Below are positions 23,785-42,957 of a DNA stretch of 43,393 nt, in pieces (the stretch's first letter is position 1; every line of letters begins with the position of its first letter). A model generated the notes under the pieces. It saw nothing but the letters and a program-made list of their open reading frames with translations, searched no databases and was not told the DNA's origin. Made by a program: the position numbers and the translations under genes. Source of the DNA: Candidatus Siliceabacter maunaloa (GTDB lineage Bacteria > Actinomycetota > Thermoleophilia > Solirubrobacterales > Solirubrobacteraceae); contig JANDLV010000034.1 in assembly GCA_024330185.1 (NCBI GenBank), positions 1 to 43,393 of the forward strand. Reading direction: 5' to 3'.

Positions 23785-25846
23785 GGCGGAGCACAAGCGA
23801 CTGCGGGGCTGCCGCGCGGACACCCTCGACGGGTACCTTCGTGCGCTGGGCCTGCTCGTCCTCGCCGACCGGGCGGGAGTTGCCGTGCGTTCCTCGTGGA
23901 ACGAGAGCGGGGTGCTCGAGCTCCATCTGCCGAAATCAGAGCGCTCGCTGTTCGCGGCGCTTGCAGAGACCGACATCGACCGCCTGCTGCCGGAGGTCCG
24001 CACCCCCTGGCGCGGCAAGGAGGGCCGGGGCTCGAGCTTCGCCGAGCTGCGCAACAACGCGAGCGACGAGGCCTTGGCCTGGTTCGACGCCTGTGCGGTC
24101 CCGCTCCTCCAGCGGCAAGCCGACAGGTCCGACAAACGAAACAATCCACTCCTAGGCCAAGGGGGAGGGTTCGGACGCTCCGAGTTGCAGGCCGCCTACG
24201 AGGACGCAAGAGAGCTTCTCGAGAAGGCGTCGACACGCCGCACGGTGCTCGCGACGGCGCTGGAGGACCTACTCGCGGGACGCGAGCCGGCGAAGGAGAC
24301 CGTCAAGCAGCTCTCGGTGCGCAGCAAGGTCCTGGGTGCCTACCAGTCCGGGCGCGCGACCGGCCCCGGCGCCACGCGGGCGGACGGTGACCCTTCGGGT
24401 CAACAGGCCTGGACCAACGCCTGGGATCTCGTCCTCGTCGTCGCCGGTACTCGCTGCTTCACGGGCTCGCTCTCGCGCAGGCCGGCGCCCGGCGCCGCGC
24501 TCCAGACCACTTTCCCGCTGCTCGTGCGCAGTCGGGCGATCGGACTGGACACCGGCAACGCCTACAGCCTCCGTGAGGAGGACGACAACGCCTATGAGCT
24601 GCTCGCGCCGTTGTGGAGCGCTGCCGCGCGGACGGATGTCGTCGTTCATCGCCTGCGTACGCTGCGCGTGCGCGTCGCCTCGGGCGCCCCGGCGCGCGAC
24701 GCCCTCGAGGCCGCCGTAGCTCAAGCGGCCACGGCGGCCGGTGCCGCGGGCTTCGATCGCCTGGAGCGCTTCGCCCTCTTCGCCCCGAGCGATCCTCGCT
24801 ACCGCTTCGCGCTGCACCGTGGGCGCCTCACAGCGCGCTCCTCCGAGGTGGCGATCGCCGCCGGACGTGACCTCCTCGCGCCGCGTCGTCGCATGGAGGC
24901 TGCCGCCGGCGACCGCCCACCAGAGGGGGTACGGCGGGCTCGAAGCGCCTTCGACGAGGCGCTTGCTCGCAACGAGCCTGCGACGACCACGCTGCTGGCT
25001 CTCACGCGCTACGAGCACGCGCTCGCGCAGAGCCTGGACGAATCTCGGCGCGAGCGCCTGCGGCTGGCGTGGCTGGATCGCAGATGGGACGCTCTCGCAG
25101 GCCGACAGCGAGAGGCTGGCTGGCGGATCGGGCGGGGCCTGGCCTGGGCCTTTCAGGTCCCGTTGCATGCGAACCGCTCGGCGGGATGGTTGCGCGGCCC
25201 GCTCCTCGGTCAGCGCTTCGACGGTGCCTGGCGCCTGGATCCATCGGGGCGCGCGGTCGATGTCATCGCGAGTGCCACGCCCCTGGACGCGCTCGTGCGC
25301 GAGGCCATCGCTGAGGGGCGACGTCTTCACGACGTGGTTGCGGCCCCGGCGCCGGTGCTCCTCGGCGACATCGTCGCTCTGCTGAGCGGCGCGGACGATC
25401 GCGAGGTGGTGAGCGCGACGCTCGGCGCAGCCCGCCTGGACGGTGTCGTACCGAGTAACAGAACGCAACCTGGCGAGGACGCGATTACTCGCGCAGACAT
25501 CGGGCGGTGGGGCATTGATCGCTTCACGGCCGTCGTCATGCTGGCCGCCCAGTCCGAGAGCGCTGGGGAACCGGCGGGCCAGCTCCTAGCGCGTCGCCTG
25601 GACCTGGCCTCGTTTGCCCTTGCGCGCGACCGTGCCCAGCTGCTGCGAACGGCGATGGCCTCGCTGTGGCGCCGCGCGCTACCGGTCGCCGCGGTTGCCC
25701 CCACGGGCTCGCTCCCGGCGCGGCCGGAGGCGCTCGCACTCGCCCTCCTGCTGACCATCGACCCCAGGGTCGTGCACGCCCTCCAAGACCGTGTCGCCCC
25801 GCCCACCACCGAACGAGGAGGACAGTCACGCGATGAGCGCCAATGA
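23759..25846 (+). CDS. csx17: Csx17, type I-G large (Cas8-like) subunit
   Basis: 695 residues. It opens with the Csx17 signature LRGCRADTLDGYLRALGLLVLA (15-36) and contains FAELRNNASDEALAWFDACAV, GTRCFTGSLSRR and ALQTTFPLLVRSRAIGLDTGN, all of which fit the subtype I-U/I-G marker protein. The family is the probable PAM-recognising large subunit of the effector. It starts at GTG 23759 inside the 3' end of cas3; a second GTG at 23777 is possible. The C-terminal half is Arg-rich. The gene end overlaps cas7 by 14 bp. Confidence 0.9.
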   Translation: MAQDETVVEAEHKRLRGCRADTLDGYLRALGLLVLADRAGVAVRSSWNESGVLELHLPKSERSLFAALAETDIDRLLPEVRTPWRGKEGRGSSFAELRNNASDEALAWFDACAVPLLQRQADRSDKRNNPLLGQGGGFGRSELQAAYEDARELLEKASTRRTVLATALEDLLAGREPAKETVKQLSVRSKVLGAYQSGRATGPGATRADGDPSGQQAWTNAWDLVLVVAGTRCFTGSLSRRPAPGAALQTTFPLLVRSRAIGLDTGNAYSLREEDDNAYELLAPLWSAAARTDVVVHRLRTLRVRVASGAPARDALEAAVAQAATAAGAAGFDRLERFALFAPSDPRYRFALHRGRLTARSSEVAIAAGRDLLAPRRRMEAAAGDRPPEGVRRARSAFDEALARNEPATTTLLALTRYEHALAQSLDESRRERLRLAWLDRRWDALAGRQREAGWRIGRGLAWAFQVPLHANRSAGWLRGPLLGQRFDGAWRLDPSGRAVDVIASATPLDALVREAIAEGRRLHDVVAAPAPVLLGDIVALLSGADDREVVSATLGAARLDGVVPSNRTQPGEDAITRADIGRWGIDRFTAVVMLAAQSESAGEPAGQLLARRLDLASFALARDRAQLLRTAMASLWRRALPVAAVAPTGSLPARPEALALALLLTIDPRVVHALQDRVAPPTTERGGQSRDERQ

Positions 25847-26828
25847 CGTCATCGATGAGCTGCGCGCCGAGCGCTTCCTGGCCCTGGACGTCGAGCTCGA
25901 GCCGCTCGGCTCTCCGACCTTCCAGGTCACGACATTCGCCAACACCGGTCCCTCGTTTTACGTTGACGCCGCCGAGCGGCTGAGCGTCATCGTCGACTCC
26001 GTCGCCTCCATGGCCAACCAGCTCGAAGCGACCGTCTGGGACCAGGTCACCGACGCTCCGGCAGCGTCCATCGCCCCCCTTCCCTGGGTCGAGGTCGTGG
26101 ACGCAGGCGGGGGCCGGTACACGACGAGCCGCGCCGCGGCGCACCGTCTCAACGCTCACACGATGTGGCAGGGCACCCTGGAAGGCGGAGAGACCTTCGG
26201 GGCGAACGTCATACATCGACTCGGCGAACCTGCTCCGCCGATCGCGCCGCCGCTGGCCGGCGTAGTCTGGGAGCTCGACCCGCTGTCGCTCCTCCAGGGC
26301 ATCTGGCTCGCTGATGCGTGGAAGGGACGGGCGCGCCTCACACGTGCCATCAGCGCACGCATCGACGCCCACGACGTACAGACCCAGAGCGTCCAGGTCG
26401 GTGGCCAGAAGACCGCCGACGCGCTGAGCGAGGTCGGTGTCGCGCAGACCCGCGAAGGCAACACCGTCCCTGGCGAGATCCCCCACCACACGAGCGAGGT
26501 GAGCGCGCGGAGCATCACGGCACGCATCCTCCTCGACGTGCGGCTACTGCGCTCCTACCGCTTGGCCGAAGCCGCCGAGCGCGCCCTGCTCGCCTGCGCG
26601 CTGCTCGAGATCGGCGAGTTGCTGGCTGACTGGCCGCGGCGGCGCAGTCGCTGCGCCCTCGACGTCAGCGCCCAGGACATCCGGCGCGGGCCGGGCAAGT
26701 GGGAGGCGCTGCCCGGGATCGATGACCTGAGGGCCCTCGCACAGGACGCCTGCCGGGCCGCCTGCGGCGAGCAGGATGCCGAGCCGTTGCGGGTCACTGC
26801 TCCGGCGAGGAAGAAGGCCGGTTCGTGA
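25833..26828 (+). CDS. cas7: Cas7 (Csb1/GSU0053 family), Cascade backbone
   Basis: 331 residues. It reads MSANDVIDELRAERFLALDVELEPLGSPTFQVTTFAN, then SVASMANQLEATVWD, a conserved IIHR-like NVIHRLGEP segment and ARSITARILLDVRLLRSYRL. These belong to the Csb1 (Cas7u) family that lines the crRNA in type I-G complexes. The ATG at 25833 is preceded by a Shine-Dalgarno (GAGGAGG, 25815-25821) and lies inside the csx17 end. Its stop is fused to the csb2 start (GTGA). Strict overlaps along the operon imply equimolar coupled translation. Confidence 0.92.
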   Translation: MSANDVIDELRAERFLALDVELEPLGSPTFQVTTFANTGPSFYVDAAERLSVIVDSVASMANQLEATVWDQVTDAPAASIAPLPWVEVVDAGGGRYTTSRAAAHRLNAHTMWQGTLEGGETFGANVIHRLGEPAPPIAPPLAGVVWELDPLSLLQGIWLADAWKGRARLTRAISARIDAHDVQTQSVQVGGQKTADALSEVGVAQTREGNTVPGEIPHHTSEVSARSITARILLDVRLLRSYRLAEAAERALLACALLEIGELLADWPRRRSRCALDVSAQDIRRGPGKWEALPGIDDLRALAQDACRAACGEQDAEPLRVTAPARKKAGS

Positions 26829-28594
26829 GCATCGCCACCCCCGTAGGTGTCGACCTGCGTCTGAGCTTTCCGTTCGGACGCTACGCGGCAACGCCCTGGT
26901 TTCGCTCCCGGCGAGAGCATGTCGGGAATGTCGAGTGGCCACCGTCGCCGTGGCGTATCGCCCGGGCTCTGGTCGCGGTCGCAGCGCGCAATCACGCGTC
27001 GGCGGCGCTCGAGGACGTCGTCACGCTCGTACGGGCGCTCGCGAAGGAGCCTCCCGTCTACAGGCTGCCGGTCACGCGCGCCCTCACCTACACCCAGTGG
27101 ATGCCGCGCTTGAATTTCGGCGACGCACTGGGATCGGACGAGCGGTTGGACAACGGACACTCGCTCCTCGATATCGCTCCCGACCAGGAGGCGACCGTGC
27201 GCTGGCCCACCGTCGAGCTCGATGAGCGTCAGCTGGCGCTCCTGGATTCCCTGCTTCTCCACCTCCCCTACCTCGGTCAGAGCGTCAGCGTGTGCGAGGC
27301 ACGACTCGCCACTACCGGAGAGCCCGACCACCCCGATGCCGAGCTGAACGCCATAGCCGGTGACCAGCCGCCGCTCGAGGAGCAGCGTTCGCGGCGCCTG
27401 CTCAGCCCCAAGACCACCGTCACGCTCGACCAGCTGAGCATCGATACGGCATGGGGTGCCGTGCGCAGCATGCCGGCGCCGCCGGGGAGCGAGTGGATCG
27501 ACTTCCTGGTCGACCAGCCGCCGCCCAGCGAACCCGTGCGGGCGCCAGAGCCCCGCGCCACGGGCGTGGTCCTGCGGCTCTCGGGTGTCCTTCGTCCGAC
27601 GGTCGCGCGACCCGAGGACCCGAGGACGGACCCGCCGGATGTGGTGATGCGCAGGCAGCTCGACAGCCGGCTCGGCCACCTCAGCGACCTGAGACTGCTG
27701 GACGACGACGGGGACGGCCGAGCCGAGCGCGTGGCGGCTCGCTTTTCGGCGCCGCGCCCAGTGAGCCAACTCCGCCGCGCCCTCGAAGGATTCTCCCTGC
27801 GGCAGGGCGATCCGGACGCGCCCCGCATGGACTGCATCGTCGATGTCGAGGAGCTCGACTGGCGCGAACCGGTCGCTCCACAGGCGGAGGCGCTGATCGA
27901 CGAGCCGGTCTGCTTTGCGCTTCGGTCAAACAACCCTCCGCTGCTGGCAGACGCGATCACCGTCGCCGAGAGCTTTCATCGGCGGCTGCTCGGGGTCGCC
28001 GCCACCCGCTTCGGTCGTGCTGCCATCCCTCCACGTCTCAGTGGCAGGAGAGCCGACGGCGAGCGGTTGCGCAGCGATCATCGCCACGCGCACGTTCTCG
28101 TGGGCTCTCGTGACGGCACGACCGCAACCCACCTCATGGTGTGGGCGCGGGGCGGGTTCTCCCCGGCGGAGGCCGAGGTCGTCCGCCTGGTCACGTTGCC
28201 GGCACTGTGCGGCTCGGGGATCATCCTCCGCGGAGTCAGCGATCATCCTTCGCTGGGCTCCTCGCAGCGATGGCAGAGCGTCACGCCGTTCTTGCCTGTG
28301 CGCCACTCCAAGCGTCGCGGCGGGCAGGTCGTGGACGGCATCGAGGATCAGGTTCGCGCCGAACTCGCGCATCGGAGCCTCCCCGCTCCCGCGGCCGTCC
28401 GGACCCCGGGTCGCGACTGGTCTGCCTTCCGCACGGTGCGAGCCAGGCGAGATCGCAGCAAGCCAGGCCTCGGCGCCCACGCGGTTCAGCTCGACTTCGC
28501 CGCTCCGGTCGCCGGGCCGCTGGCGCTCGGCGCCAACGCCCACTTCTCGATGGGCCTGTTCGTTCCGGTGAGCGACGAGCATGGCGACGGGTGA
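26825..28594 (+). CDS. csb2: Csb2, Cas5-Cas6 fusion of type I-G
   Basis: 589 residues joining a Cas5-like N-terminal part (LRLSFPFGRYAATPW ... VEWPPSPWRIARALVAV) to a Cas6-like endoribonuclease part. The Cas6 half shows LSGRRADGERLRSDHRHAHVLVG with histidines at 419, 421 and 423 as candidate catalytic residues, and a C-terminal G-rich loop LGANAHFSMGLF (568-579). It should cleave the repeat hairpin to leave an 8-nt handle (GTTGAAGC in array 1) and cap the crRNA 5' end. GTG start, GTGA overlap with cas7. Confidence 0.92.
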   Translation: MSIATPVGVDLRLSFPFGRYAATPWFRSRREHVGNVEWPPSPWRIARALVAVAARNHASAALEDVVTLVRALAKEPPVYRLPVTRALTYTQWMPRLNFGDALGSDERLDNGHSLLDIAPDQEATVRWPTVELDERQLALLDSLLLHLPYLGQSVSVCEARLATTGEPDHPDAELNAIAGDQPPLEEQRSRRLLSPKTTVTLDQLSIDTAWGAVRSMPAPPGSEWIDFLVDQPPPSEPVRAPEPRATGVVLRLSGVLRPTVARPEDPRTDPPDVVMRRQLDSRLGHLSDLRLLDDDGDGRAERVAARFSAPRPVSQLRRALEGFSLRQGDPDAPRMDCIVDVEELDWREPVAPQAEALIDEPVCFALRSNNPPLLADAITVAESFHRRLLGVAATRFGRAAIPPRLSGRRADGERLRSDHRHAHVLVGSRDGTTATHLMVWARGGFSPAEAEVVRLVTLPALCGSGIILRGVSDHPSLGSSQRWQSVTPFLPVRHSKRRGGQVVDGIEDQVRAELAHRSLPAPAAVRTPGRDWSAFRTVRARRDRSKPGLGAHAVQLDFAAPVAGPLALGANAHFSMGLFVPVSDEHGDG

Positions 28595-30257
28595 GGCAGA
28601 CGCACTCGACGTCGTGCCGCCGGTGGTCCCGGCCCGGATGCTCAACGAGCACGTCTACTGCCGACGGCTCGCATACCTCGAATGGGTCGACGCGCGTTTC
28701 ACCGACAATCAGGACACGGTCGAGGGCCGGTTCGCCCATCGCCGTGTCGACACGACGCGCGGAGCCCCGCCGGAACCGGGGGAGGACGAGGGAGAAACGC
28801 GGCCTGCGAGCACCTCGGTCTGGCTGTCCTCGAACGAGCTCGGGCTGAGCGCCAAGATCGACCTGCTTGAGAGCCATGGGGAGACGGTCAAGCCGGTGGA
28901 GTACAAGCACGGCCGTCCACGCAGCGCGGAGCAGCCGCTGTGGGAGCCGGAGCGCATCCAGCTATGCGCACAGGTCCTGCTTCTGCGCGCCTCGGGCTAC
29001 CGGGTCGAGGAGGCCGAGGTCTACTTCGAGGGCTCGCGCTCGCGCCATCGCATCCCGATCGACGACGAGCTCGTCCGGGCCGCCAGGGAGGCCGTGACGC
29101 AGTTGCGCGCCGACGCCGCGCTCAGCGAACCACCTCCACCGCTCGTGGACAGCCCGAAGTGCCCGCGCTGCTCACTGGTCGGGCTGTGCCTCCCGGACGA
29201 GGTCTCCCAGCTCGGCGGCGTGCGGAGCCCGCCGGCGCGGCGGCTGGTCGCGAGCGACAACCCGGCACAACCGCTCTATCTCACCGAGCAGGGCGCCACG
29301 CTGACCAAGCGTGGCGCCCGGCTGATCCTCCTGCACGAGGGAAAGGAGATCGCTTCGCGGCGGCTGCTGGACGTCTCTCACATCGGGGTGTTCGGCAATG
29401 CCTCGGTGCGAAGCGCCGCGCTGCGCGCATGCTTCGAGGCGGGGGTCACGGTGCTCTGGTTCAGCTACGGAGGCTGGTTCGCTGGGTTCGCCGGTCCGCT
29501 GTCGGGTGGGAGTGTCGAGCTGCGGGCGCGCCAGCACCGAGCAGCCGCGATCGGCGCCCCCGAGCTCGCCGCCGCGTTCGTCGCGGGCAAGATCCGCAAC
29601 TGCCGCACCTTGCTTCGCCGCCACGGCGGCGAAGCCATCCGACCACTGCTCGGTCAGCTCGCCTCTCTCGCGGCGCAAGCCGAGAAGGAGCGGCGACTGG
29701 ACGCACTGCTCGGTCTCGAGGGAACCGCCGCGCGGTTGTACTTCGGCAGCTTCGCCGGGTTGTTCGCCCACGCTCGCTCCCCGGGCACCTTTGATTTCGA
29801 AGGGCGCAATCGGAGACCTCCGCTCGATCCGATCAACGCGCTGTTGTCCTTCGCGTACGCAATGTTGATCAAGGACACGACGGTCGCTCTTGTCGCCGCC
29901 GGGCTGGATCCCTACGTCGGGATGTATCACCGCCCGCGGTTCGGGCGCCCAGCGCTCGCACTCGACCTGGCAGAGGAGTTCCGTCCACTGATCGCCGACT
30001 CGACCGTACTGCGGGCGATCAACAACGGCGAGATCGACGCAAAGGACTTCATTCACCGCGCGGGGGCCGTCTCGTTGACACCGGCTGGCCGGAAGCGCAT
30101 GATCGCCAGCTACGAGCGTCGCATGACCGACGAACTGCTCCATCCGGTATTCGAGTACCGGGCAAGCTACCGGCGGACCCTCGAGATCCAGGCGCGGATG
30201 CTCGCGGCAACTCTTGTCGGCGACGTCGACGAGTACCGATCCTTGACAACCAGATAG
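28581..30257 (+). CDS. cas4-cas1: Cas4-Cas1 fusion integrase
   Basis: 558 residues. The Cas4 part (1-210) has Cys27, RecB-type nuclease residues Asp94 and Glu107/Lys109 (KPVEYKHG), and the iron-sulfur cysteines CPRCSLVGLC (194, 197, 203). The Cas1 part (about 220-558) has the metal-site triad Glu380 (LGLEG), His450 (GMYH) and Asp462 (ALDLAEEF). Such fusions are a hallmark of type I-G adaptation. Cas4 trims and orients prespacers by PAM; Cas1 with Cas2 inserts them. It overlaps csb2 by 14 bp and precedes cas2 by 3 bp. It appears intact, unlike the copy at 41376-42957. Confidence 0.95.
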   Translation: MATGEADALDVVPPVVPARMLNEHVYCRRLAYLEWVDARFTDNQDTVEGRFAHRRVDTTRGAPPEPGEDEGETRPASTSVWLSSNELGLSAKIDLLESHGETVKPVEYKHGRPRSAEQPLWEPERIQLCAQVLLLRASGYRVEEAEVYFEGSRSRHRIPIDDELVRAAREAVTQLRADAALSEPPPPLVDSPKCPRCSLVGLCLPDEVSQLGGVRSPPARRLVASDNPAQPLYLTEQGATLTKRGARLILLHEGKEIASRRLLDVSHIGVFGNASVRSAALRACFEAGVTVLWFSYGGWFAGFAGPLSGGSVELRARQHRAAAIGAPELAAAFVAGKIRNCRTLLRRHGGEAIRPLLGQLASLAAQAEKERRLDALLGLEGTAARLYFGSFAGLFAHARSPGTFDFEGRNRRPPLDPINALLSFAYAMLIKDTTVALVAAGLDPYVGMYHRPRFGRPALALDLAEEFRPLIADSTVLRAINNGEIDAKDFIHRAGAVSLTPAGRKRMIASYERRMTDELLHPVFEYRASYRRTLEIQARMLAATLVGDVDEYRSLTTR

Positions 30258-30735: not shown

Positions 30736-33700
30736 GTCACCGGGGTCTTACGGCCCCGGCTCCGTTGAAGCGGAGGACGCTGGAACGACGTACTGGTCGG
30801 CGCCGGGTCACCGGGGTCTTACGGCCCCGGCTCCGTTGAAGCATGTTCGGCTCCTTGGATCGCAGTGCGCGAGGATGTGTCACCGGGGTCTTACGGCCCC
30901 GGCTCCGTTGAAGCACGTGGTAGCGCGCCATCCCGCGCGCGTCGAGGCGGTCACCGGGGTCTTACGGCCCCGGCTCCGTTGAAGCGCGTCGTCGTCGTTG
31001 GTGCCCACGAGCTGCTTGAGGTCACCGGGGTCTTACGGCCCCGGCTCCGTTGAAGCCGAAGGCGTCGGGTCGCCTCATCCGCGCTCCCCGGTGAGGTCAC
31101 CGGGGTCTTACGGCCCCGGCTCCGTTGAAGCAGCGAGACGGCGATGTCCGTTGCACGGCCCGCGGATCGTCACCGGGGTCTTACGGCCCCGGCTCCGTTG
31201 AAGCACCTCCTGGCGGATGGCCTGCCCGAAGGTGCCCTTGGTCACCGGGGTCTTACGGCCCCGGCTCCGTTGAAGCACCGAGAGCCTGGCCAAGGGGCTG
31301 CCCGCGATCGTGTGGTCACCGGGGTCTTACGGCCCCGGCTCCGTTGAAGCTTCGGCCGGGACGTGGTGTCGATCTGGCCGGTCGAGCGTCACCGGGGTCT
31401 TACGGCCCCGGCTCCGTTGAAGCCTCTTGTCGGCGATCGACCCGACCGAGCCCGCCGCGTCACCGGGGTCTTACGGCCCCGGCTCCGTTGAAGCGTTGCC
31501 AGGTGCGCTGTGCCTGGGGCTGAGTGGTGTCACCGGGGTCTTACGGCCCCGGCTCCGTTGAAGCACGATGAACGGCGACCGGGGACAGCAGGTGGCATGA
31601 CGTCACCGGGGTCTTACGGCCCCGGCTCCGTTGAAGCATGGGGCAGCCGGTCATCTTCTACTCCGTGGCTGAGCGTCACCGGGGTCTTACGGCCCCGGCT
31701 CCGTTGAAGCCGCGGCAGACCATCGAGCGTGTAGGTCGCCGAGTCGAGGTCACCGGGGTCTTACGGCCCCGGCTCCGTTGAAGCACTACCTCGACGTGAC
31801 CCGGCGTGGGCATCGCGCCGGTCACCGGGGTCTTACGGCCCCGGCTCCGTTGAAGCTAGGCGTTGACGGCGGCGTCGACGGCGGCGTCGACGTCACCGGG
31901 GTCTTACGGCCCCGGCTCCGTTGAAGCCTCACGGGCCCGTTGATCAGCATCTTCACTAAGCTGTCACCGGGGTCTTACGGCCCCGGCTCCGTTGAAGCTT
32001 GGCGCCGGCGAGCTTCTCGTCGACCTCGCTGACGGTCACCGGGGTCTTACGGCCCCGGCTCCGTTGAAGCGACCTCGACCGCAGCTATCGCAACTTCTTC
32101 GAGGGGGGCGTCACCGGGGTCTTACGGCCCCGGCTCCGTTGAAGCCTGCGCGACGCGTCGATCGACGTGAGGTGCTTGGCCGTCACCGGGGTCTTACGGC
32201 CCCGGCTCCGTTGAAGCCGGGAGCAGTCGGCTCAGTTGACCGATGCCCGCCGCGAGTCACCGGGGTCTTACGGCCCCGGCTCCGTTGAAGCCCGTTGATC
32301 CGTGGCTGCTGGGCTACTGGCTCGGGGGTCACCGGGGTCTTACGGCCCCGGCTCCGTTGAAGCGTTTCCGCGGATGTACGGCCGGTGGGCGTGCTCGGGC
32401 GTCACCGGGGTCTTACGGCCCCGGCTCCGTTGAAGCCCTGGGGTACCCCAAGCGCCGGCACTAAAGCCCCAAGGTCACCGGGGTCTTACGGCCCCGGCTC
32501 CGTTGAAGCCTCCCCTCGCGGTCGCCGCGCTCCAAGATGTTCGCGACGTCACCGGGGTCTTACGGCCCCGGCTCCGTTGAAGCTGCGCGGCTTGGCGGAC
32601 ATAGCCCTTGCTGCTGGTCGTCACCGGGGTCTTACGGCCCCGGCTCCGTTGAAGCGACGCTAACCACGGGCCCGGGCAGGGCGGCGGGATCGGTCACCGG
32701 GGTCTTACGGCCCCGGCTCCGTTGAAGCGGGGACCCAGCCCGCAGCAGCGCGCCGCGATGGCCGTCACCGGGGTCTTACGGCCCCGGCTCCGTTGAAGCT
32801 TCTCGTGGATGAAGGCCAGGCCATCATCGAGGGCGTCACCGGGGTCTTACGGCCCCGGCTCCGTTGAAGCCAGAACATGAGCCAGGTGGCCGATCGCTGG
32901 GGTCGGTCACCGGGGTCTTACGGCCCCGGCTCCGTTGAAGCGACACCACCAACCGCAAGATGAACCGGTGGGTCCGCGGTCACCGGGGTCTTACGGCCCC
33001 GGCTCCGTTGAAGCGGGGGACGCTCGCTCAGCGGCCGCGCGCGCGTATGGTCACCGGGGTCTTACGGCCCCGGCTCCGTTGAAGCCGCAGGAACCACTCG
33101 TTGGCCTCGCGGCCCTGGGCGGTCACCGGGGTCTTACGGCCCCGGCTCCGTTGAAGCCACTCACCGAACGCCGCGTTGTCCAGCAGCGCCGCGTCACCGG
33201 GGTCTTACGGCCCCGGCTCCGTTGAAGCGCCCGCGACGCGACGATGACCGCCGATCAGGCCCGCGGTCACCGGGGTCTTACGGCCCCGGCTCCGTTGAAG
33301 CGCGAAACGAATCGTCTCGTAGGAGTTGCGCCGGTAGGCGTCACCGGGGTCTTACGGCCCCGGCTCCGTTGAAGCAGGGGTGTCCTCGCCGGGGCCGGGG
33401 TTCGCGGCGCTGTCACCGGGGTCTTACGGCCCCGGCTCCGTTGAAGCGACTCGTCGCCTCGAACTCCAGGCTGTGACCTTGGTGGTCACCGGGGTCTTAC
33501 GGCCCCGGCTCCGTTGAAGCTGGCCGACATCAGATTAGCCGCCACGATGCTGCCGTCACCGGGGTCTTACGGCCCCGGCTCCGTTGAAGCGAGGGGCTGC
33601 CCGAGCTGGCGGGCCGCGTGGACGTGGTCACCGGGGTCTTACGGCCCCGGCTCCGTTGAAGCCTCTCCATCCCCCCGCGCCTGGTCGGCGTGTTCGCTGT

Positions 33701-35816
33701 CACCGGGGTCTTACGGCCCCGGCTCCGTTGAAGCAGCCAGAGCATCGGGAACGTCGCCCGGCTCCACGGCGTCACCGGGGTCTTACGGCCCCGGCTCCGT
33801 TGAAGCATCGACCGCCACCAGGGGGTAACGGGCGGAGCGCGTCACCGGGGTCTTACGGCCCCGGCTCCGTTGAAGCCAGAACAACCTCGGCGGGCTGCGC
33901 TCCTTCGGGCTGTCACCGGGGTCTTACGGCCCCGGCTCCGTTGAAGCTTCTTCTTCTTCTTCTTCTCGCTGTTGTTCGTTGGGTCACCGGGGTCTTACGG
34001 CCCCGGCTCCGTTGAAGCGCTGTTCACAACTGCGGCTTGGTGGTCGATGTCGCGTCACCGGGGTCTTACGGCCCCGGCTCCGTTGAAGCCGCTTCTGGTC
34101 CGGCGTCGCCTTCGCGCGGCTATCACGTCACCGGGGTCTTACGGCCCCGGCTCCGTTGAAGCTTCCTCAAGCTCGACCAGATCATCGAGGAGCTGGACGT
34201 CACCGGGGTCTTACGGCCCCGGCTCCGTTGAAGCCGCAGCACCGGGCTGACGCAGACAGGCTGGTCGGTGTCACCGGGGTCTTACGGCCCCGGCTCCGTT
34301 GAAGCGCGATCGCCGGCGCCGGGCTGACGGCCACGCTGCACCGGTCACCGGGGTCTTACGGCCCCGGCTCCGTTGAAGCTGGTGACCCACGCGAAATCGG
34401 TGGACGATGCATGGTCACCGGGGTCTTACGGCCCCGGCTCCGTTGAAGCAGCCTCACCATCCAGCGCCACAACGCGCGCCCCGTCGTCACCGGGGTCTTA
34501 CGGCCCCGGCTCCGTTGAAGCGTCGAGGGGCTGCGCGTCGGGCCCGACCGCGAGACGTCACCGGGGTCTTACGGCCCCGGCTCCGTTGAAGCACCATCAG
34601 GTGGGTGTGCCACGCGACCGCTAGGCCAGGTCACCGGGGTCTTACGGCCCCGGCTCCGTTGAAGCCGCAACATCGCGCCGTCGGGCCGGCCGCAGCAGGT
34701 CACCGGGGTCTTACGGCCCCGGCTCCGTTGAAGCACGCGCTGCTCGCACTCGTCGCTTCGACCGGGGCCGTCACCGGGGTCTTACGGCCCCGGCTCCGTT
34801 GAAGCGCGGAACTGACGACCCCGGAGTGGGTGGCCGCCTGTCACCGGGGTCTTACGGCCCCGGCTCCGTTGAAGCTACGTCCGGAGGGCGTTGGCACCAC
34901 GGTATCCAGGTCACCGGGGTCTTACGGCCCCGGCTCCGTTGAAGCTTCGCGTCGACGTTGACGAGCCGGGGGTCGGACGCGTCACCGGGGTCTTACGGCC
35001 CCGGCTCCGTTGAAGCGCCTCATGACCGCGAAGGAACAGCTCCAGCCGCTGGTCACCGGGGTCTTACGGCCCCGGCTCCGTTGAAGCCCAGAACTCGCGG
35101 GTGGAGGGCCGCAGGAACGGCATCGTCACCGGGGTCTTACGGCCCCGGCTCCGTTGAAGCCTCCACGCGCTGCACTACACCTACGCTGAGATCGGCGGTC
35201 ACCGGGGTCTTACGGCCCCGGCTCCGTTGAAGCAGGACCTGCATCTGCTGCGTGTCGACCCGCGCCGTCGTCACCGGGGTCTTACGGCCCCGGCTCCGTT
35301 GAAGCACGGTGCATCCGTACAACGCGTGGGGCGACGAGCGTCGTCACCGGGGTCTTACGGCCCCGGCTCCGTTGAAGCGACCTCGAAGCCTTCTACGCCG
35401 CCGGGCCGCTGCGGCGTCACCGGGGTCTTACGGCCCCGGCTCCGTTGAAGCCGCAAGCAGATCCTTCCGATGGCCACCGTGGAGCACCGTCACCGGGGTC
35501 TTACGGCCCCGGCTCCGTTGAAGCTGGGATCCCAATGGAAGGGTATACCTACTTCTTCACCGTCACCGGGGTCTTACGGCCCCGGCTCCGTTGAAGCCCG
35601 GTAGCGGGTACTACGTCGGCGTGACCGTGGAGCAGGTCACCGGGGTCTTACGGCCCCGGCTCCGTTGAAGCCTCGTCATCCGGGCTGCGCCATCCCTCGT
35701 GGCGCGGCGTCACCGGGGTCTTACGGCCCCGGCTCCGTTGAAGCAACCGGACGCTCACGCCGTCCTGCTCGGCGGCGCGTGTCACCGGGGTCTTACGGCC
35801 CCGGCTCCGTTGAAGC
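30736..35816 (+). CRISPR. CRISPR array 1, 71 repeats of 36 nt, 70 spacers
   Basis: I counted 71 repeat starts by hand from 30736 to 35781, mean period about 72 nt, spacers about 33-38 nt. Every repeat read looks identical, including the last one. The repeat carries a 6-bp stem CCGGGG/CCCCGG around an 8-nt loop and ends GCTCCGTTGAAGC, so the last 8 nt GTTGAAGC should be the crRNA handle. The form fits type I-G repeats and the adjoining cas genes. No repeated spacer was noticed. Two spacers are low complexity (31857-31891, three near-copies of a GGCGTCGAC word; 33948-33982, a CTT run). Confidence 0.99.
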
Positions 35817-35969
35817 ACGGGCACGTTGACCTGTTGAGCGCAGGCGGGGGGCGGTGGTCTGGTCCGCGGTCCAGCGGACCTCCGTCTCCACAACGCTGCC
35901 CTGCGCTGGCGAGACGACGACGAGCGGAGCGAGCAGGACCATCAGGAAGGGGGCAGCAAGTCGACACAT
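35817..35969 (-). pseudogene. possible truncated secreted-protein start abutting the array
   Basis: From ATG 35969 the minus strand reads a clean signal-peptide-like start (MCRLAAPFLMVLLAPLVVVSP with AQG), then about 25 ordinary residues (VVETEVRWTADQTTAPRLR) before running into the last CRISPR repeat. It looks like the first exon-sized piece of a lipoprotein or exported protein cut off by the array. No ribosome site is evident and the piece is short, so chance cannot be excluded. Confidence 0.3.
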
Positions 35970-36085
35970 CGCGCCGTGGTAAAAGACCACGCCGGCGCCA
36001 CGGTCGGGTTTCCCGCGCCTCCGGCGTCTGGGGCGCCCCGGTGCGCGGGGCCGAGGGTGCTGGATACCTAACATCCGGGTACGTG

Positions 36086-36679
36086 ATGTTTGGCAACCAG
36101 ATACTGGATGCAACCGCCGTAGGCGAGCTGCTGCACGCGCTCGCTGACCAGCTCGCAGTACGGCAGCAGCGATTCACGCTGGCCGTCGTGGGCGGCTCCG
36201 CGCTGCTCGTCCTCGGACTCGCCTCGCGGGTGACCCGCGACGTCGATGTCGTCGCGGTGCTCGATGGCGACGCCCTGTTGGCGGCCCAGCCGCTTCCCGA
36301 GCGCCTCGCCGAAGCCGTCCGAGTCGTCGCCCGCGACTTCGGACTCGACGAGGACTGGCTGAACCCCGGCCCTACCGCCCTTCTCGACTTCGGCCTCCCC
36401 GAGGGCTTCTACGAACGCGCGCACCGCCGCGCCTACGGCGATTCGCTCGCCGTCCTCTTCGCCTCGCGCATCGACCAGATCCATCTCAAGCTGTACGCGA
36501 CGGTGGACCAGGGCGCCGGTAAGCACCTCGCTGACCTGGAGGCTCTGCAGCCCACCGCGCAGGAGCTCATGGCCGCCGCCCGCTGGAGCCGCACACACGA
36601 CCCATCAGAGGGCTATCGCAGTGTGCTGACCCAGGTCCTCGCCCACCTCGGAGTCGACGATGCACCCCTCGACGCTTAG
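36086..36679 (+). CDS. DUF6036/AbiEii-like nucleotidyltransferase
   Basis: 197 residues. The core LAVVGGSALLVLGLASRVTRDVDVVAVLD has the nucleotidyltransferase G-G-S and D-x-D pattern (RxTxDxDV), followed by FGLDEDWLNPGPTALLDFGLPEGF and RIDQIHLKLYATVDQGAGKHLADLEAL. This is the DUF6036 type of minimal nucleotidyltransferase, related to AbiEii toxins. A TAACAT -10-like box (36069-36074) suggests a nearly leaderless transcript starting around 36081. The next gene overlaps by 20 bp. A role as a toxin or antitoxin partner is inference. Confidence 0.8.
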   Translation: MFGNQILDATAVGELLHALADQLAVRQQRFTLAVVGGSALLVLGLASRVTRDVDVVAVLDGDALLAAQPLPERLAEAVRVVARDFGLDEDWLNPGPTALLDFGLPEGFYERAHRRAYGDSLAVLFASRIDQIHLKLYATVDQGAGKHLADLEALQPTAQELMAAARWSRTHDPSEGYRSVLTQVLAHLGVDDAPLDA

Positions 36680-38088: not shown

Positions 38089-38292
38089 GTGGCGAAGAAG
38101 TACCGCGACGTCCAGGCGGCGCTCCGGGACGCCGGGTTCGAGCGAGTACGCACCTCAGGTAGCCACGAGGTCTGGCGCCACGGTGACGGACGGCAGACCA
38201 CGCTCTCCGCGGGAGGGAAGGCAAACCGAGAGGTGGCTCGCGGAACACTCGCTAGCATCCGCCGTGACACAGGGTTGGAGGATCTTCGGTGA
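38089..38292 (+). CDS. hicA: HicA toxin (mRNA interferase)
   Basis: 67 residues of the HicA double-stranded-RNA-binding-like fold. The catalytic histidine sits in TSGSHEVWRHGDG, and the C-terminal GTLASIRRDTGLEDL is the family ending. HicA cleaves mRNA and halts translation until neutralised by HicB. The start is GTG 38089; an upstream in-frame TTG (38077) is possible. An AGGAGG at 38052 is too far away to serve. It is translationally coupled to hicB by a GTGA overlap. Confidence 0.9.
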   Translation: MAKKYRDVQAALRDAGFERVRTSGSHEVWRHGDGRQTTLSAGGKANREVARGTLASIRRDTGLEDLR

Positions 38293-38501
38293 CGACCTAC
38301 AACGTGGTCTATGAGCAAGCGGGCGACGGAAGCTGGAGCGCGTCGTCGCCTGACGTACCAGGGTGCTACTCAGTAGGCGACACCGTCGAGGAGGCCGAAG
38401 CCGGAATGCGTGAGGCGATGGCTGTGCACCTCGAGGAGTTGCGCCGGCACGGCGACCCGCTCCCCAAGCGACGCTCCGCTGTCGGGACGGTCACGGCGTA
38501 A
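38289..38501 (+). CDS. hicB: HicB antitoxin
   Basis: 70 residues of the short HicB type with YNVVYEQAGDGSWSASSPDVPGCYSVGDTVEEAEAGMREAMAVHLEELRRHGDPLP. It binds HicA and blocks its active site. There is no C-terminal DNA-binding domain, so autoregulation probably depends on the complex or on coupling. GTG start overlaps the hicA stop. Confidence 0.92.
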   Translation: MTTYNVVYEQAGDGSWSASSPDVPGCYSVGDTVEEAEAGMREAMAVHLEELRRHGDPLPKRRSAVGTVTA

Positions 38502-38597: not shown

Positions 38598-39228
38598 TCA
38601 GCCGAGCGAGCGGACGGTCTGCTTCGACGGCCAGCGTTCGCGGACGTAGTCCTCGATCTCGATCCCGGTAGCGCGCGGGTGCTGTTGCTCATCCGCACCC
38701 AGAAGACCTCGCGCTTGTCGCTCATGCGGGCGTGGACGGGCGAGGAGGAGCGCGCGACGTCGACGCGACAGATCTCCCGCCCGCGCACCCAGTCGATCCG
38801 GCTGCGGGTGCGCATCACCGGGGTGTGGCGCAGCGCCCCGATGAGGTGGGTCGTGAGCCAGTTGACGAGCCCGTCGGCGTTGGGCGGCTTGACGAGGGCG
38901 AGGTCGTGGTCGAGCCCGATGGGCGTGCGCGCGTCGTCGACCCCGATGAAGAGGGTGCCGCCGTCGGCGTTAAGGAACCCGGCGATCGTCTTGACCACCG
39001 CGTCCTCCATGCGCTTGTCCTTGCACCCGTCGCGCACGTTCCAGCGGGCCGTGGACTTGAACTCGACGTCGTGGGTCTCGTCGGCGGCGATCAGCTCCTC
39101 GCTGGGCACCGCGAAGAAGGCCTTGTCGCCGCGCAGCTGCTCGGCGACCAGCCCGGCGAAGGCGGCGTCGGTGCGGATGCGCTCGAGGACGCTGATCGTG
39201 ACCGCTTCGACATCGAAGTTGTGGACCG
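38598..39228 (-). pseudogene. AlbA_2/Schlafen-like DNA-binding protein fragment, frameshifted
   Basis: The minus strand encodes an AlbA_2 (PF04326-type) domain: DETHDVEFKSTARWN ... VKTIAGFLNADGGTLFIGVDD ... FWVRMSNSTRA. The frame then breaks in a (CG)n run. Removing one CG pair restores TRATGIEIEDYVRERW and a stop at 38598. At the other end the frame continues as VEAVTISVLERIRTDAAFAGLVAEQL until it meets transposase sequence at about 39230, where the 5' part is missing. So the gene is cut at one end and shifted at the other. Confidence 0.65.
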
Positions 39229-39460
39229 GGGGACGGGCTTCACGGCCCCAAGCTCGTCCGCGCGACCGCCCGCCGGACGGTGCTGCTGGCGTTCATCGAC
39301 GATCACTCGCGGCTGCTGGTCGGCTGGCGGTGGGGCGCTGGCAAGGACGTGTTCGGGCTCGAGGCCGCGCGCGCTCGGGGCTGTTGGCGCACGGGCTTCC
39401 CGATGCGGTCCTGGTCGATCGCGGCTCGGCGTTCGTGTCCTCGCAGCTGCTGCGGGAACA
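39229..39460 (+). pseudogene. DDE integrase-core transposase remnant (IS481/Mu-like)
   Basis: From 39232 the plus strand reads DGLHGPKLVR ... LLAFIDDHSRLLVGWRWG ... DVFGLEAA, then, in another frame, GLPDAVLVDRGSAFVSSQLLR. These are the typical core strands of an rve/DDE transposase. Both ends are missing: the left meets the AlbA_2 gene, the right runs into the degenerate CRISPR repeat at 39448. Not functional. Confidence 0.75.
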
Positions 39461-40892
39461 CTCGCCCCTGAAGGAGGCGAGGCTGTACCGCCGCGCCCAG
39501 GAACCCGGCCGGTTCGTGCCTCGATGAACTCGCCCCCTGAAGGAGGCGAGGGGCGACGGCGCACCCCGACGCGGCGAAGCGTCGCGCGCCTCGATGAACT
39601 CGCCCCCCTGAAGGAGGCGAGGGAGAGTCCTACCCAGCGCTCGACACGCTGGCGAAGCCTCGATGAACTCGCCCCCCTGAAGGAGGCGAGGGTTGCTGGC
39701 ACTCCGGACAGACGAGCTTTGCGGTGCGGCCTCGATGAACTCGCCCCCCTGAAGGAGGCGAGGGACCGCTGCGCCTCGGCTGCCAGCACCGTCAGGTCGC
39801 CTCGATGAACTCGCCCCCCCTGAAGGAGGCGAGGGCTGCGCATGAGGCGTGGCCCACCGTCGTGACTGACGCCTCGATGAACTCGCCCCCCTGAAGGAGG
39901 CGAGGGGGCGCAGCCCTCCGCGTCCGCGCGGCGACGACACGCCTCGATGAACTCGCCCCCCTGAAGGAGGCGAGGGACCGCTGCGCCTCGGCTGCCAGCA
40001 CCGTCAGGTCGCCTCGATGAACTCGCCCCCCTGAAGGAGGCGAGGGCAGGTCGAGGCCACCCTCGACTCGGTCGCGACGCGCCTCGATGAACTCGCCCCC
40101 CTGAAGGAGGCGAGGGGGTCTCGAGCCTGCCGTCCGCGCTCGTGCTGCTCGCCTCGATGAACTCGCCCCCCTGAAGGAGGCGAGGGCGGGGTCGCCGTCC
40201 ATCCTACTGCGCAGAGCGCGCCTCGATGAACTCGCCCCCCTGAAGGAGGCGAGGGGATGGTGGCCGGCGATGACTACGTGTGTGCGGTGCGGGCCTCGAT
40301 GAACTCGCCCCCCTGAAGGAGGCGAGGGCTGCGCATGAGGCGTGGCCCACCGTCGTGACTGACGCCTCGATGAACTCGCCCCCCTGAAGGAGGCGAGGGG
40401 GCCCTCAACTGCTCGGGGGTCACCTTTGCGTCGCCTCGATGAACTCGCCCCCCTGAAGGAGGCGAGGGACGGCGCGCCCCGACGGCGGTGCTCTGCCAGC
40501 GGCCTCGATGAACTCGCCCCCCTGAAGGAGGCGAGGGGTGACGGACGCCCAGCAGACCATCACCGTGAGTCGGCCTCGATGAACTCGCCCCCCTGAAGGA
40601 GGCGAGGGCCTCATCGGTGTGGCCATCCACGAAGCACTGGAAGCGGCCTCGATGAACTCGCCCCCCTGAAGGAGGCGAGGGTATGGACACCGGGCGACAT
40701 GGTCGCCTTCAACGGGCCTCGATGAACTCGCCCCCCTGAAGGAGGCGAGGGCCTTGAGCACCCGCCAGGCGAACCGCAGATCAAGACGCCTCGATGAACT
40801 CGCCCCCCTGAAGGAGGCGAGGGTTGGTTTTCCTCTCCTGCTGTCGCGCTATGGACGCCTCGATGAACTCGCCCCCCTGAAGGAGGCGAGGG
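39448..40892 (-). CRISPR. CRISPR array 2, about 21 repeats of 36 nt
   Basis: Twenty good repeats from 39518 to 40892 plus one strongly degenerate copy at about 39448-39482. Period about 70-71 nt. In the transcribed (minus) orientation the repeat has a CTCGCC/GGCGAG stem, extendable to about 9 bp, and ends ATCGAGGC, recalling the GTTGAAGC handle of array 1. The leader and cas2 lie at the right. The poly-C tract varies: 5 C at 39518, 7 C at 39799, 6 C elsewhere. Two spacers occur twice: 39765-39798 equals 39977-40010, and 39836-39870 equals 40329-40363. Confidence 0.98.
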
Positions 40893-41076
40893 TCCGGCTC
40901 AAGATCAACCGGGAATTGCAGCGGCTTTTGGCGTCAGTGCGCAGGGTCACGTCGGTAGCCGGTCAGATGAGGTTGTCAAGGAGCGCGGCTCCAACAGAGA
41001 CTAAGCGCTTGCAGGCTTATCTCTAGATCGCAGGCTCACCGCACATCTCGGCTCACCGCAGCCCGCGCAAGCGCGC
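40893..41076 (-). promoter_or_regulatory. leader of CRISPR array 2
   Basis: 184 bp between the array and cas2 (minus strand), relatively AT-rich, no ORF. On the minus strand TTGACA (40979-40974) is followed after 16 bp by TACCGA (40957-40952), a weak -10, so the pair is only a candidate promoter for the array. Confidence 0.6.
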
Positions 41077-41379
41077 CTACAGGATCAGGGCCGAGGCGTC
41101 GCCCGTCAAGGTGGGGGGCCGCCCGAGGTAGGTCATCGCCCGTCGAGCGGCATTCTGCCGTGCTCCAAGGTTACAGAAGAGGACACGGTCAACACTCTCG
41201 TCGATGATGGTCCTGAGTTCCAGCCTGAGCCGCACGAACTCCGCCGGACGTCCGTCGACAATGAAGACGCTGTACTGAATCCGCTCTCCGTGGCCTTGGA
41301 GCGTTACCGCCACTCGGTCGCGACGAGCATCGTTCGCGATGTCATAGGCGACCAAGAGCCGCTGGACTGATTCGCTCAT
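41077..41379 (-). CDS. cas2: Cas2 of the second CRISPR locus
   Basis: 100 residues with SVQRLLVAYDIANDARRDRVAVTLQGHGERIQYSVFIVDG, conserved Asp13. It differs clearly from the Cas2 at 30261, so the two loci are not recent duplicates. Its ATG overlaps the cas1 stop as ATGA. The array leader follows it on the same strand. Confidence 0.95.
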   Translation of the reverse strand: MSESVQRLLVAYDIANDARRDRVAVTLQGHGERIQYSVFIVDGRPAEFVRLRLELRTIIDESVDRVLFCNLGARQNAARRAMTYLGRPPTLTGDASALIL

Positions 41380-42957
41380 CTGACCATTATGGGTCGGTAC
41401 CCGTCCATCTCCCCCAGTACCACGCCCAGGAACATTCTCGCCTGCACCTCCATCGCCCGGCGCCAGGTCACGCGATAGCCGAAGCGTGGATGAGTGAACT
41501 CGGCGTTCGCCCGACGCTCGTACGCACCGATCACCGCCTTCCGCCCGCGCTCGGTCAACCGGACCGCGTCGAGATCGCGTCGAAAGTCGTGCTCACGCAG
41601 CTCACCGTTGTTGATCGCCCAGAGGACCGCGGAATCGGCGACGGGAGCGCGGAGTTCCTCCATCAGGTCCAGCGCAAGCGCAGGTTTGTTGCGCTTCGCA
41701 GTGTGTAGGACGCCCCCCGAGGGGTCGAGTCCGCAAGCGACCACGCTGCGCAACACGTCGGCGAGCAGGAGGCCATAAGCGAGATTCAGTGCCGCGTTGA
41801 CAAAGTCGGGCGCGGGCCTCGACATGCGGCGCGGGATCACCGCCCAGTCCGGAGCGAGCGCCGACGACAGCTCAGGGAAGTAGAGCGCGGCGGCGCGCCC
41901 TTCGAGACCGAACAGCTCCTCGATGCTGGGGGCTACCTCAGCGGTGACTGCCAGCCGGCGGAGCATCGAGCGTGTCGCATTCCCGTGCCGGCGAAGCACA
42001 GCGGCCTGGTTTCGTACCTTGGCCGCCACCATGGCCCGGGGCGACCTCCAGCCGGACAGCCTCAGGTAGTCGGTGCTGGAGACTGCGCGCCTCGCCGTTG
42101 GGACCGCCCGCCGAGTTCGCCCAGCCAACCACGCGGCCGGACCAGGCACACCACACCACCGGATAACCGCGCATCAGGGTCTCGCGCAAGAGCGCCGCGG
42201 ACACGTCCACGTTTCCGTGAATCACCAACCCCGCGGTCTGGGCGAGCGGAACCGTCGTCGGTGGTTCGTCTCGGACGTAGACCTGGATCTGTCCGCGGCG
42301 CAGGCTTGCCCGACTGCCCGCTGACGAGAGATGCAGGACCCGGCCGGTGGGGTCCGCCACGCCGATCCGTCGCGCTGAGGGGCGGAGGCGATGCTCGTCC
42401 GGCAGGCAGACCGACACGTGGCTGCACCGCCGGCAGCGTGGGTCATCCTCGAGGGGAGGAGGAGGCGCCGGCGCGTCGATGACCTGCCGCGCAGCACGAG
42501 CCTGTCGCTCGGCCTCTCCGAGCAGCTCGTCGTCGAGCCCGACCTCGACGCGGCGATGGGTGGTGCTAAACCACACTGCAGCCCCGGCGACCTCGTCTCC
42601 CCGCTCCCGCAAGCACAACGCCTGGAGCGCGAGCTGAACGCGCTGTGGCAGCGTCGGTTCGGAGCTGCGGCGCACCGGTGCCGCCTTGTGCTCGACTACG
42701 GTCATCGCCCCGTCATCGGACAGCTCGACGGTGTCGCAGCGGCCAGTCAGATCGAGGCGCTCGGAGCGGACGTCGACGGAGCGCATGCGCACGGATCGCG
42801 AGGTGCCCGGATCATCCACGGCGGCGTGGTCCGCGATGCCCTGCGCCACCTGCCCGGTGTCCGTGCGCTCTCCGTGCACCTCGAGCCAGGCCCGGCGGGG
42901 GCAGAAGGCATGGTGGGCGACGAGGCTGATCGGGAGCGGATCGTCCGGAGCCGTCAT
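41376..42957 (-). pseudogene. cas4-cas1: Cas4-Cas1 fusion, disrupted by a single-base frameshift
   Basis: Reading from ATG 42957: a Cas4 domain (CPRRAWLEVHGER, VVEHKAAP, CRRCSHVSVCLPDE) then Cas1 start (GRVLHLSSAGSRASLR ... VIHGNVDVS ... VVWCAWSGRVVGW) up to about SLQHR (42071-42080). The frame then shifts by one base, and the rest of Cas1 continues in the new frame (YLRLSGWRSPRAMVAAKVRN ... LFGLEGRAAALYF ... GVLHTAKRNKPALALDLMEEL) to a TGA at 41376-41378, with the Glu, His and Asp sites intact. One extra base near 42069 explains it. Total length is 1582 nt, one more than a multiple of three. It may be a true pseudogene or a sequencing error. Confidence 0.85.

What the first reader, a model, noticed from the sequence alone, without database searches (positions are those of the whole stretch)
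39220..39520. Old end of array 2 fused to a transposase remnant
A frameshifted DDE transposase core runs directly into a degenerate last repeat: the repeat's distal half (CTCGCCCCTGAAGGAGGCGAGG) is preserved but the rest is replaced by transposase coding sequence. On the other side the transposase cuts off an AlbA_2 gene. This marks an IS-mediated deletion that trimmed the array.
Basis: partly seen in the sequence, partly recalled or inferred. Interest (0 to 1): 0.5.

Follow-up and report, generated by a model that had tools for sequence, protein, structure and literature searches.

The report
Transposase scrap abutting CRISPR array end
At the old end of a bacterial CRISPR array, a 240-base scrap from the middle of a decayed transposon is wedged between the broken tail of a restriction-enzyme gene and a clipped CRISPR repeat; it is most likely an ordinary scar of genome decay.

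Summary
Window 39217-39456 is a twice-frameshifted piece of a DDE (rve) transposase, 75.5-82.1% identical in DNA over 229-242 nt to 28 of 41 relatives compared. It abuts a clipped outermost repeat of array 2 (39456-39482), then a normal 35-nt spacer. Three points change. (1) The 'AlbA_2 gene' is the tail of a Type I restriction HsdR subunit; about 1,100 residues are missing. (2) The clipped repeat keeps 27 of 36 nt at 24/27 identity; the outer 8-9 nt are gone. (3) The intact element in Conexibacter is 4.56 kb with inverted ends; the scrap is purely internal, 1.28 and 3.06 kb from them. Neither junction is an element end, so a classical IS-mediated adjacent deletion is not supported. Overlap at both joins is 0-3 bp and the genome encodes Ku, so end-joining of deletions after an insertion is the likeliest route. 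Loss of whole spacer units is not shown. A curiosity: the repeat is cut where type I-G Csb2 would cut the RNA, so the last crRNA keeps its hairpin. A new instance of a known kind; low interest.

The parts
38598..39216 (-). 3' remnant of hsdR (Type I restriction R subunit): C-terminal AlbA_2-bearing ~185 residues, frameshifted again near its end (~38666; the last residues and stop at 38598 are read by eye in another frame); about 1,100 N-terminal residues absent
   Evidence: tblastn to residues 1102-1285 of the 1306-codon HsdR ORF of G067, 72% identity; domains of that HsdR; own C69 paralogue 78% nt over 577 columns, ending at 39216
39217..39456 (+). internal fragment (about aa 157-236 of 455) of a DDE/rve transposase, two frameshifts
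39217..39217 (.). join 1: hsdR / transposase interior, 0-3 bp overlap
39456..39456 (.). join 2: transposase interior / repeat, about 1 bp overlap; outer 8-9 nt of the repeat lost
39456..39482 (-). clipped outermost repeat of array 2; hairpin kept, 3' handle part lost
   Evidence: 24 of 27 identity; RNA fold -13.5 kcal/mol with an 8-bp stem
39483..39517 (-). outermost spacer, 35 nt
   Evidence: length within the range of the other 19 spacers, 33-37 nt
39518..40892 (-). CRISPR array 2: 20 full repeats of 35-37 nt, type I-G neighbourhood
40893..41076 (-). leader-like stretch between array 2 and cas2, sharing TTGTCAAGGA(A/G)CG with the corresponding stretches in G055 and G022, by eye
   Evidence: sequence
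41077..41379 (-). cas2
   Evidence: PF09827 E 3e-17; TIGR01573 over its cut-off
41376..42956 (-). cas4/cas1 fusion (type I-G), broken by a frameshift at about 42038-42064; start codon at 42956 is by eye
   Evidence: NF049935 matches in two overlapping ORFs; two-frame tblastn to the open G055 protein

Best explanation
The site is a double-junction scar. At some time a copy of a 4.5-kb DDE transposon (transposase + AAA ATPase + two more ORFs, as found in Conexibacter) sat near an hsdR gene and the trailer end of a type I-G CRISPR array. Later deletions with almost no sequence overlap, most simply made by end-joining of broken DNA, removed both ends of the transposon, the first ~3.3 kb of hsdR and the outer 8-9 nt of the last repeat, leaving about 240 bp of transposase interior welded between the two. 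Shown: the identities of the three pieces, both junction positions, the absence of element ends, the frameshifts, and that searches of the assembled genome found no second copy of this transposase and no HSDR_N domain. Inferred: that the full transposon was once inserted here, the order of events, and end-joining as the agent. The remnant has no function that I can see. The array's last repeat-spacer unit should still be processable because its hairpin is intact.
For: Transposase homology starts at 39217 in 25 of 32 aligned loci and ends at 39448-39456 in 29 of 32, while hsdR homology ends at 39216 in the own C69 copy and in G077, and at 39211 in G067. The fragment lies 1,277 bp and 3,056 bp from the ends of the 4,562-bp element. 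In the own genome no second copy of this DNA or transposase and no HSDR_N (the same search is positive in 9 of 14 control genomes) was found; the element's AAA protein also found nothing (a search without a positive control). Frameshifts cluster here: two in the transposase, one near the hsdR end (~38666), one in cas4/1, whereas the five long system-1 cas ORFs at 21331-30257 are open. Joins share at most 3 bp (read by eye). Ku is present, E 1.4e-53. None of 41 element loci holds the 13-nt repeat core, so the repeat is not part of the element.
Against: No relative with the intermediate (whole element between hsdR and an array) was found among 231 other genomes of the order, so the insertion step is unseen. 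The two relatives with a similar repeat have neither hsdR nor this transposase in the 19.5 and 18 kb read around their arrays, so the ancestral neighbourhood is unknown. The genome is a 120-contig assembly and its reads cannot be examined. Ku shows capacity, not cause. Overlaps of 0-3 bp are also expected by chance.
Confidence: 0.72

Rival explanations
1. Transposition-driven adjacent deletion: the element itself made the deletion into the array (or hsdR), and a later unrelated deletion removed the element's end, hiding the signature.
For: A transposase sequence does sit at the junction; loss of CRISPR units next to IS6110 is described in M. tuberculosis (PMC7708916, passages seen).
Against: Neither junction is at an element end; it needs one more event than the simple scar.
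Confidence: 0.12
2. Relocation: the array-2 module arrived or was moved by recombination next to an already degraded hsdR-transposase scrap, so the array itself was never invaded.
For: The same-genus genome G001 lacks this repeat and this transposase; the stretches read around the arrays of G055 and G022 hold no match to hsdR or the transposase.
Against: It still requires a break inside the terminal repeat and inside the transposase; I saw no mark of an incoming boundary, though I did not search for one beyond these joins.
Confidence: 0.1
3. Assembly chimera: the joins are artefacts of assembly.
For: 120 contigs; a second transposase/hsdR join exists on contig C69.
Against: The joined pieces share at most 3 bp, far below usual assembler overlaps (recalled); searches found no other copy of the transposase piece in the genome to be misjoined from; frameshifts argue for old decay.
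Confidence: 0.06
4. CRISPR self-targeting: a spacer matched the transposon or hsdR and Cas3 resection made the deletion.
For: Two type I-G loci are on the contig; that Cas3 self-targeting can delete DNA is recalled, not looked up.
Against: 90 spacers (70 of array 1, 20 of array 2) against 16 transposon/hsdR loci and the masked window gave at best 15-nt exact or 18/19-nt matches; the same spacers read backwards, as a control, gave 5 hits of 30 bits or more against 7, with the same maximum.
Confidence: 0.02

Closest known systems
4.56-kb DDE + AAA-ATPase transposon of Conexibacter sp. S30A1 (NZ_CP097127.1; 9 transposase copies)
   Same: Window fragment aligns to the interior of its transposase at 75.5% (main type) and 77.8% (divergent copy) nucleotide identity; other MAG copies reach 82.1%.
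   Different: Window holds about 5% of the element: no element ends, no AAA ORF, no other ORF, two frameshifts.
IS6110-linked loss of CRISPR units in Mycobacterium tuberculosis (PMC7708916, passages seen)
   Same: Array shortened or bordered next to a mobile element.
   Different: There IS6110 copies border the deletions and recombination between IS copies or repeats is the explanation given; here only an interior scrap without ends remains.
IS elements disrupting or flanking CRISPR loci in E. coli (PMC2886076, passages seen) and IS transposition into cas genes (PMC10359306, search listing only)
   Same: Mobile elements degrade CRISPR loci.
   Different: Those are element insertions or flanks; here the element is reduced to about 240 bp.
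HsdR subunits with a C-terminal AlbA_2 domain (domains shown for G067; similar long ORFs in G077, G098)
   Same: 72% protein identity over 184 residues to G067.
   Different: Window lacks the regions that in G067 carry HSDR_N, SWI2/SNF2, T1R domain 3 and T1RH-like_C.

Membership tests
Conexibacter-type 4.56-kb DDE/AAA transposon | rve-type transposase homologous over the catalytic core | tested here: met
   for a piece only: 32 of 41 loci align; 10 of 232 order genomes, own included, match the first 50-aa piece
Conexibacter-type 4.56-kb DDE/AAA transposon | terminal inverted repeats at both ends with target duplication | tested here: not met
   fragment lies 1.28 and 3.06 kb inside the element; it is a remnant, not a member copy
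Conexibacter-type 4.56-kb DDE/AAA transposon | partner AAA ATPase ORF | tested here: not met
   none of the other three element ORFs matches the window at E<=0.01; AAA protein: no match in own genome, without a positive control
IS-mediated adjacent deletion | an intact element end at a deletion junction | tested here: not met
   both junctions inside the transposase ORF
IS-mediated adjacent deletion | an undeleted relative showing the lost DNA | tested here: inconclusive
   no relative with either junction among 231 other genomes of the order (2 candidates scored per genome)
Type I-G CRISPR array | adjacent cas2 and fused cas4/cas1 of the Cas4g/Cas1g family | tested here: met
   NF049935 is the best NCBIfam match of both pieces of a frameshifted gene, each below the whole-protein cut-off of 560 bits (210 and 240); cas2 over its cut-off
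Type I-G CRISPR array | its own complete effector set (Csb1, Csb2, Cas8g, Cas3) | not testable with these tools
   contig ends at 43393; the effector genes seen lie beside array 1, with Cas8g/Csx17 below its cut-off (80 of 150 bits)
Type I HsdR | HSDR_N nuclease, SWI2/SNF2 motor and C-terminal domains | tested here: not met
   only the C-terminal AlbA_2 part remains; full set in G067

The most novel reading that the evidence does not exclude
The break in the last repeat is not random. In the transcript direction the repeat keeps its hairpin plus UUC and loses exactly the 8-nt handle, i.e. it is cut at the place where type I-G Csb2 would cleave a 36-nt repeat RNA to leave an 8-nt handle (PMC9638904, passages seen). 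Either selection kept only joins that leave the last crRNA processable, or the processing site itself marks a preferred break.
Probability: 0.05. Interest if true: 0.55.

Novelty: new member of a known kind. Interest (0 to 1): 0.2.

Why it matters
It is a clean, mappable case of how an array's old end and a neighbouring restriction gene decay through a transposon, and it warns that a transposase at an array edge does not prove IS-driven deletion: the element's ends must be mapped. If the cut at the Csb2 site recurred at other arrays, it would say that the outermost repeat is under selection to keep the last crRNA processable, which surveys of array ends could test directly.

Tried and rejected
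Element end at either junction: rejected. Repeat as part of the element: none of 41 element loci holds the 13-nt repeat core. Second copy or other half of the element in the own genome: not found (completeness given as 95.43%; one search has no positive control). The 9 rve hits do not include this place, and the transposase search found none of them, so they are other transposases. Same junction in relatives: none seen. Self-targeting spacers: hardly more than in a reversed-spacer control, 7 against 5 hits of 30 bits. CRISPR-associated-transposon reading: considered because the element has a transposase plus AAA ATPase pair (its likeness to TniA/TniB is recalled), rejected because only an internal transposase scrap is present, without ends. 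Exact repeat search in the named genome collection: 0 matches, the own genome possibly left out. Named organism of the window: not established; the searched relatives include Conexibacter, order Solirubrobacterales. Paper searches for precedents; none of the titles listed there describes this particular scar.

Full report
What is there. Array 2 runs 39518-40892 with 20 full repeats GCCTCGATGAACTCGCCCCCCTGAAGGAGGCGAGGG (+ strand; the copy at 39518 has 5 and that at 39799 has 7 C's in the run) and 19 spacers of 33-37 nt between them. Beyond it to the left lie one more 35-nt spacer (39483-39517) and a clipped repeat (39456-39482, 24 of 27 identical). The leader side is on the right: cas2 (41077-41379), a cas4/cas1 fusion of the I-G family, and between them and the array a stretch sharing TTGTCAAGGA(A/G)CG with the same place in relatives G055 and G022 (by eye). 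In G055 and G022 too, cas4/1 and cas2 homologues lie on that side.

The transposase. Window 39217-39456 aligns with the interior of a transposase gene in 32 of 41 element loci (several loci are the same place fetched twice); 25 of the 32 alignments start at 39217 and 29 end at 39448-39456. Eight copies of the main type are 99.8-100% identical over 4,561-4,576 bp, begin TGTTGAGCGCCGTT and end with its complement, and 6 of 7 inspected copies (L079, L080, L078, L081, L083, L084; not L082) show 5-7-bp target duplications (read by eye). The element encodes a DUF6431/HTH-like protein (below Pfam's cut-offs), an rve + Mu-transposase-C protein of 455 aa, an AAA ATPase of 271 aa and a 423-aa protein without a Pfam match. 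The window fragment corresponds to 4217-4445 of L079, so it is 1,277 bp from the left end (2940) and 3,056 bp from the right (7501). The two halves are in different frames (39229-39402 and 39375-39455), and the DNA alignment shows one extra and one missing base.

The left neighbour. The AlbA_2 sequence is not a gene of its own. In G067, G077 and G098 the homologous stretch is the C-terminal tail of ORFs of 1,306-1,328 codons stop to stop; the G067 protein has HSDR_N, SWI2/SNF2, T1R domain 3, T1RH-like_C and SLFN_AlbA_2. The window matches its residues 1102-1285, so about 1,100 residues are gone. DNA homology to hsdR ends at 39216 in the own C69 copy and in G077, and at 39211 in G067, one base or a few before the transposase begins. 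HSDR_N was not found in the assembled genome, while the same search is positive in 9 of 14 control genomes.

The junctions. Laid side by side, left: hsdR ...TCGA and element ...CGAGTTGTGGAC give window ...TCGAAGTTGTGGAC, an overlap of 0-3 bp. Right: element ...CTGCGGGCGTG (a composite; single loci read TTGCGGGCG, CTCCGGGCG, CTGCGCGCG or TTGCGTGCG) and repeat ...GATGAACTC give window ...CTGCGGGAACACTC, an overlap of about 1 bp. The genome has Ku. None of the other 231 genomes of the order shows a match spanning either join: their matches lie at query 2-120 (hsdR) or 118-357 (transposase) (13 of 232 genomes matched, own included, and only 2 candidates per genome were scored).

Comparison arrays. 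The 71 array-1 repeats found (up to 6 substitutions allowed) are identical, the trailer copy included, and no further repeat-like copy follows within about 180 nt. The outermost repeats of the G055 and G022 arrays are degenerate by substitution but keep CCTCGATGAAC. So in 3 of 3 comparison arrays the outer 8 nt are present, which suggests that their loss here belongs to the rearrangement rather than to ordinary end-repeat drift; three is a small sample.

Does the array still work? The clipped repeat folds into an 8-bp stem (-13.5 kcal/mol, z -1.65; the full repeats at 39518 and 39588 give -16.9, z -2.19, and -17.7, z -2.12). In type I-G, Csb2 cuts a 36-nt repeat leaving an 8-nt handle, 4 nt 3' of the hairpin base (PMC9638904, passages). 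Here the full repeat's predicted stem ends at nt 25 and the 8-nt handle would start at nt 29 (a 3-nt gap in this fold). The break removes just these 8 nt. The outermost crRNA should therefore still mature if the locus is transcribed and a Csb2 acts on it. Agreement of one breakpoint with one site out of about 36 is weak, noticed after the fact, and may be chance.

Mechanism. The simplest history is insertion of the element near hsdR and the array, followed by deletions joined without homology that removed both element ends. Transposition-driven deletion would leave an element end at a junction (recalled), and none is there; it cannot be excluded as an earlier stage. Whether whole spacer units were lost cannot be told. 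Frameshifts in the transposase, the hsdR tail and this locus's cas4/1, against open cas ORFs in system 1, suggest an old, decaying region (sequencing error cannot be ruled out for each one). Spacers give no sign of self-targeting.

Novelty. Mobile elements trimming or bordering CRISPR loci are in print (PMC7708916, PMC2886076, passages; PMC10359306, listing only). This is one more case, with unusually clear breakpoints.

Noticed in passing
L071 3033-5234 and 4889-5917 (own genome C69): A second hsdR remnant in the same genome is also cut (at residue ~563) and joined out of frame to the interior of an IS1595-type transposase, so both hsdR remnants found lack their N-terminal part and each abuts a different broken transposase.
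   Followed up: partly
41376-42956: cas4/cas1 of the array-2 locus is frameshifted near 42038-42064 relative to an open relative (G055), so new spacer uptake by this locus may be dead or may use the open Cas4/1 at 28581-30257.
   Followed up: partly
39765-39798 and 39977-40010; 39836-39870 and 40329-40363: Two spacers of array 2 each occur twice, a sign of internal duplication.
   Followed up: no
30736-35816: Array 1 has 71 repeats found and all are identical, with no degenerate trailer repeat seen.
   Followed up: partly
38089-38501: HicA/HicB toxin-antitoxin pair with overlapping genes between the two arrays; a DUF6036/AbiEii-type nucleotidyltransferase lies in the ORF 35699-36679.
   Followed up: no
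L077 2823-10926: In Conexibacter sp. S30A1 one copy of the element appears inserted inside a divergent (~77-80%) copy of the same family.
   Followed up: no
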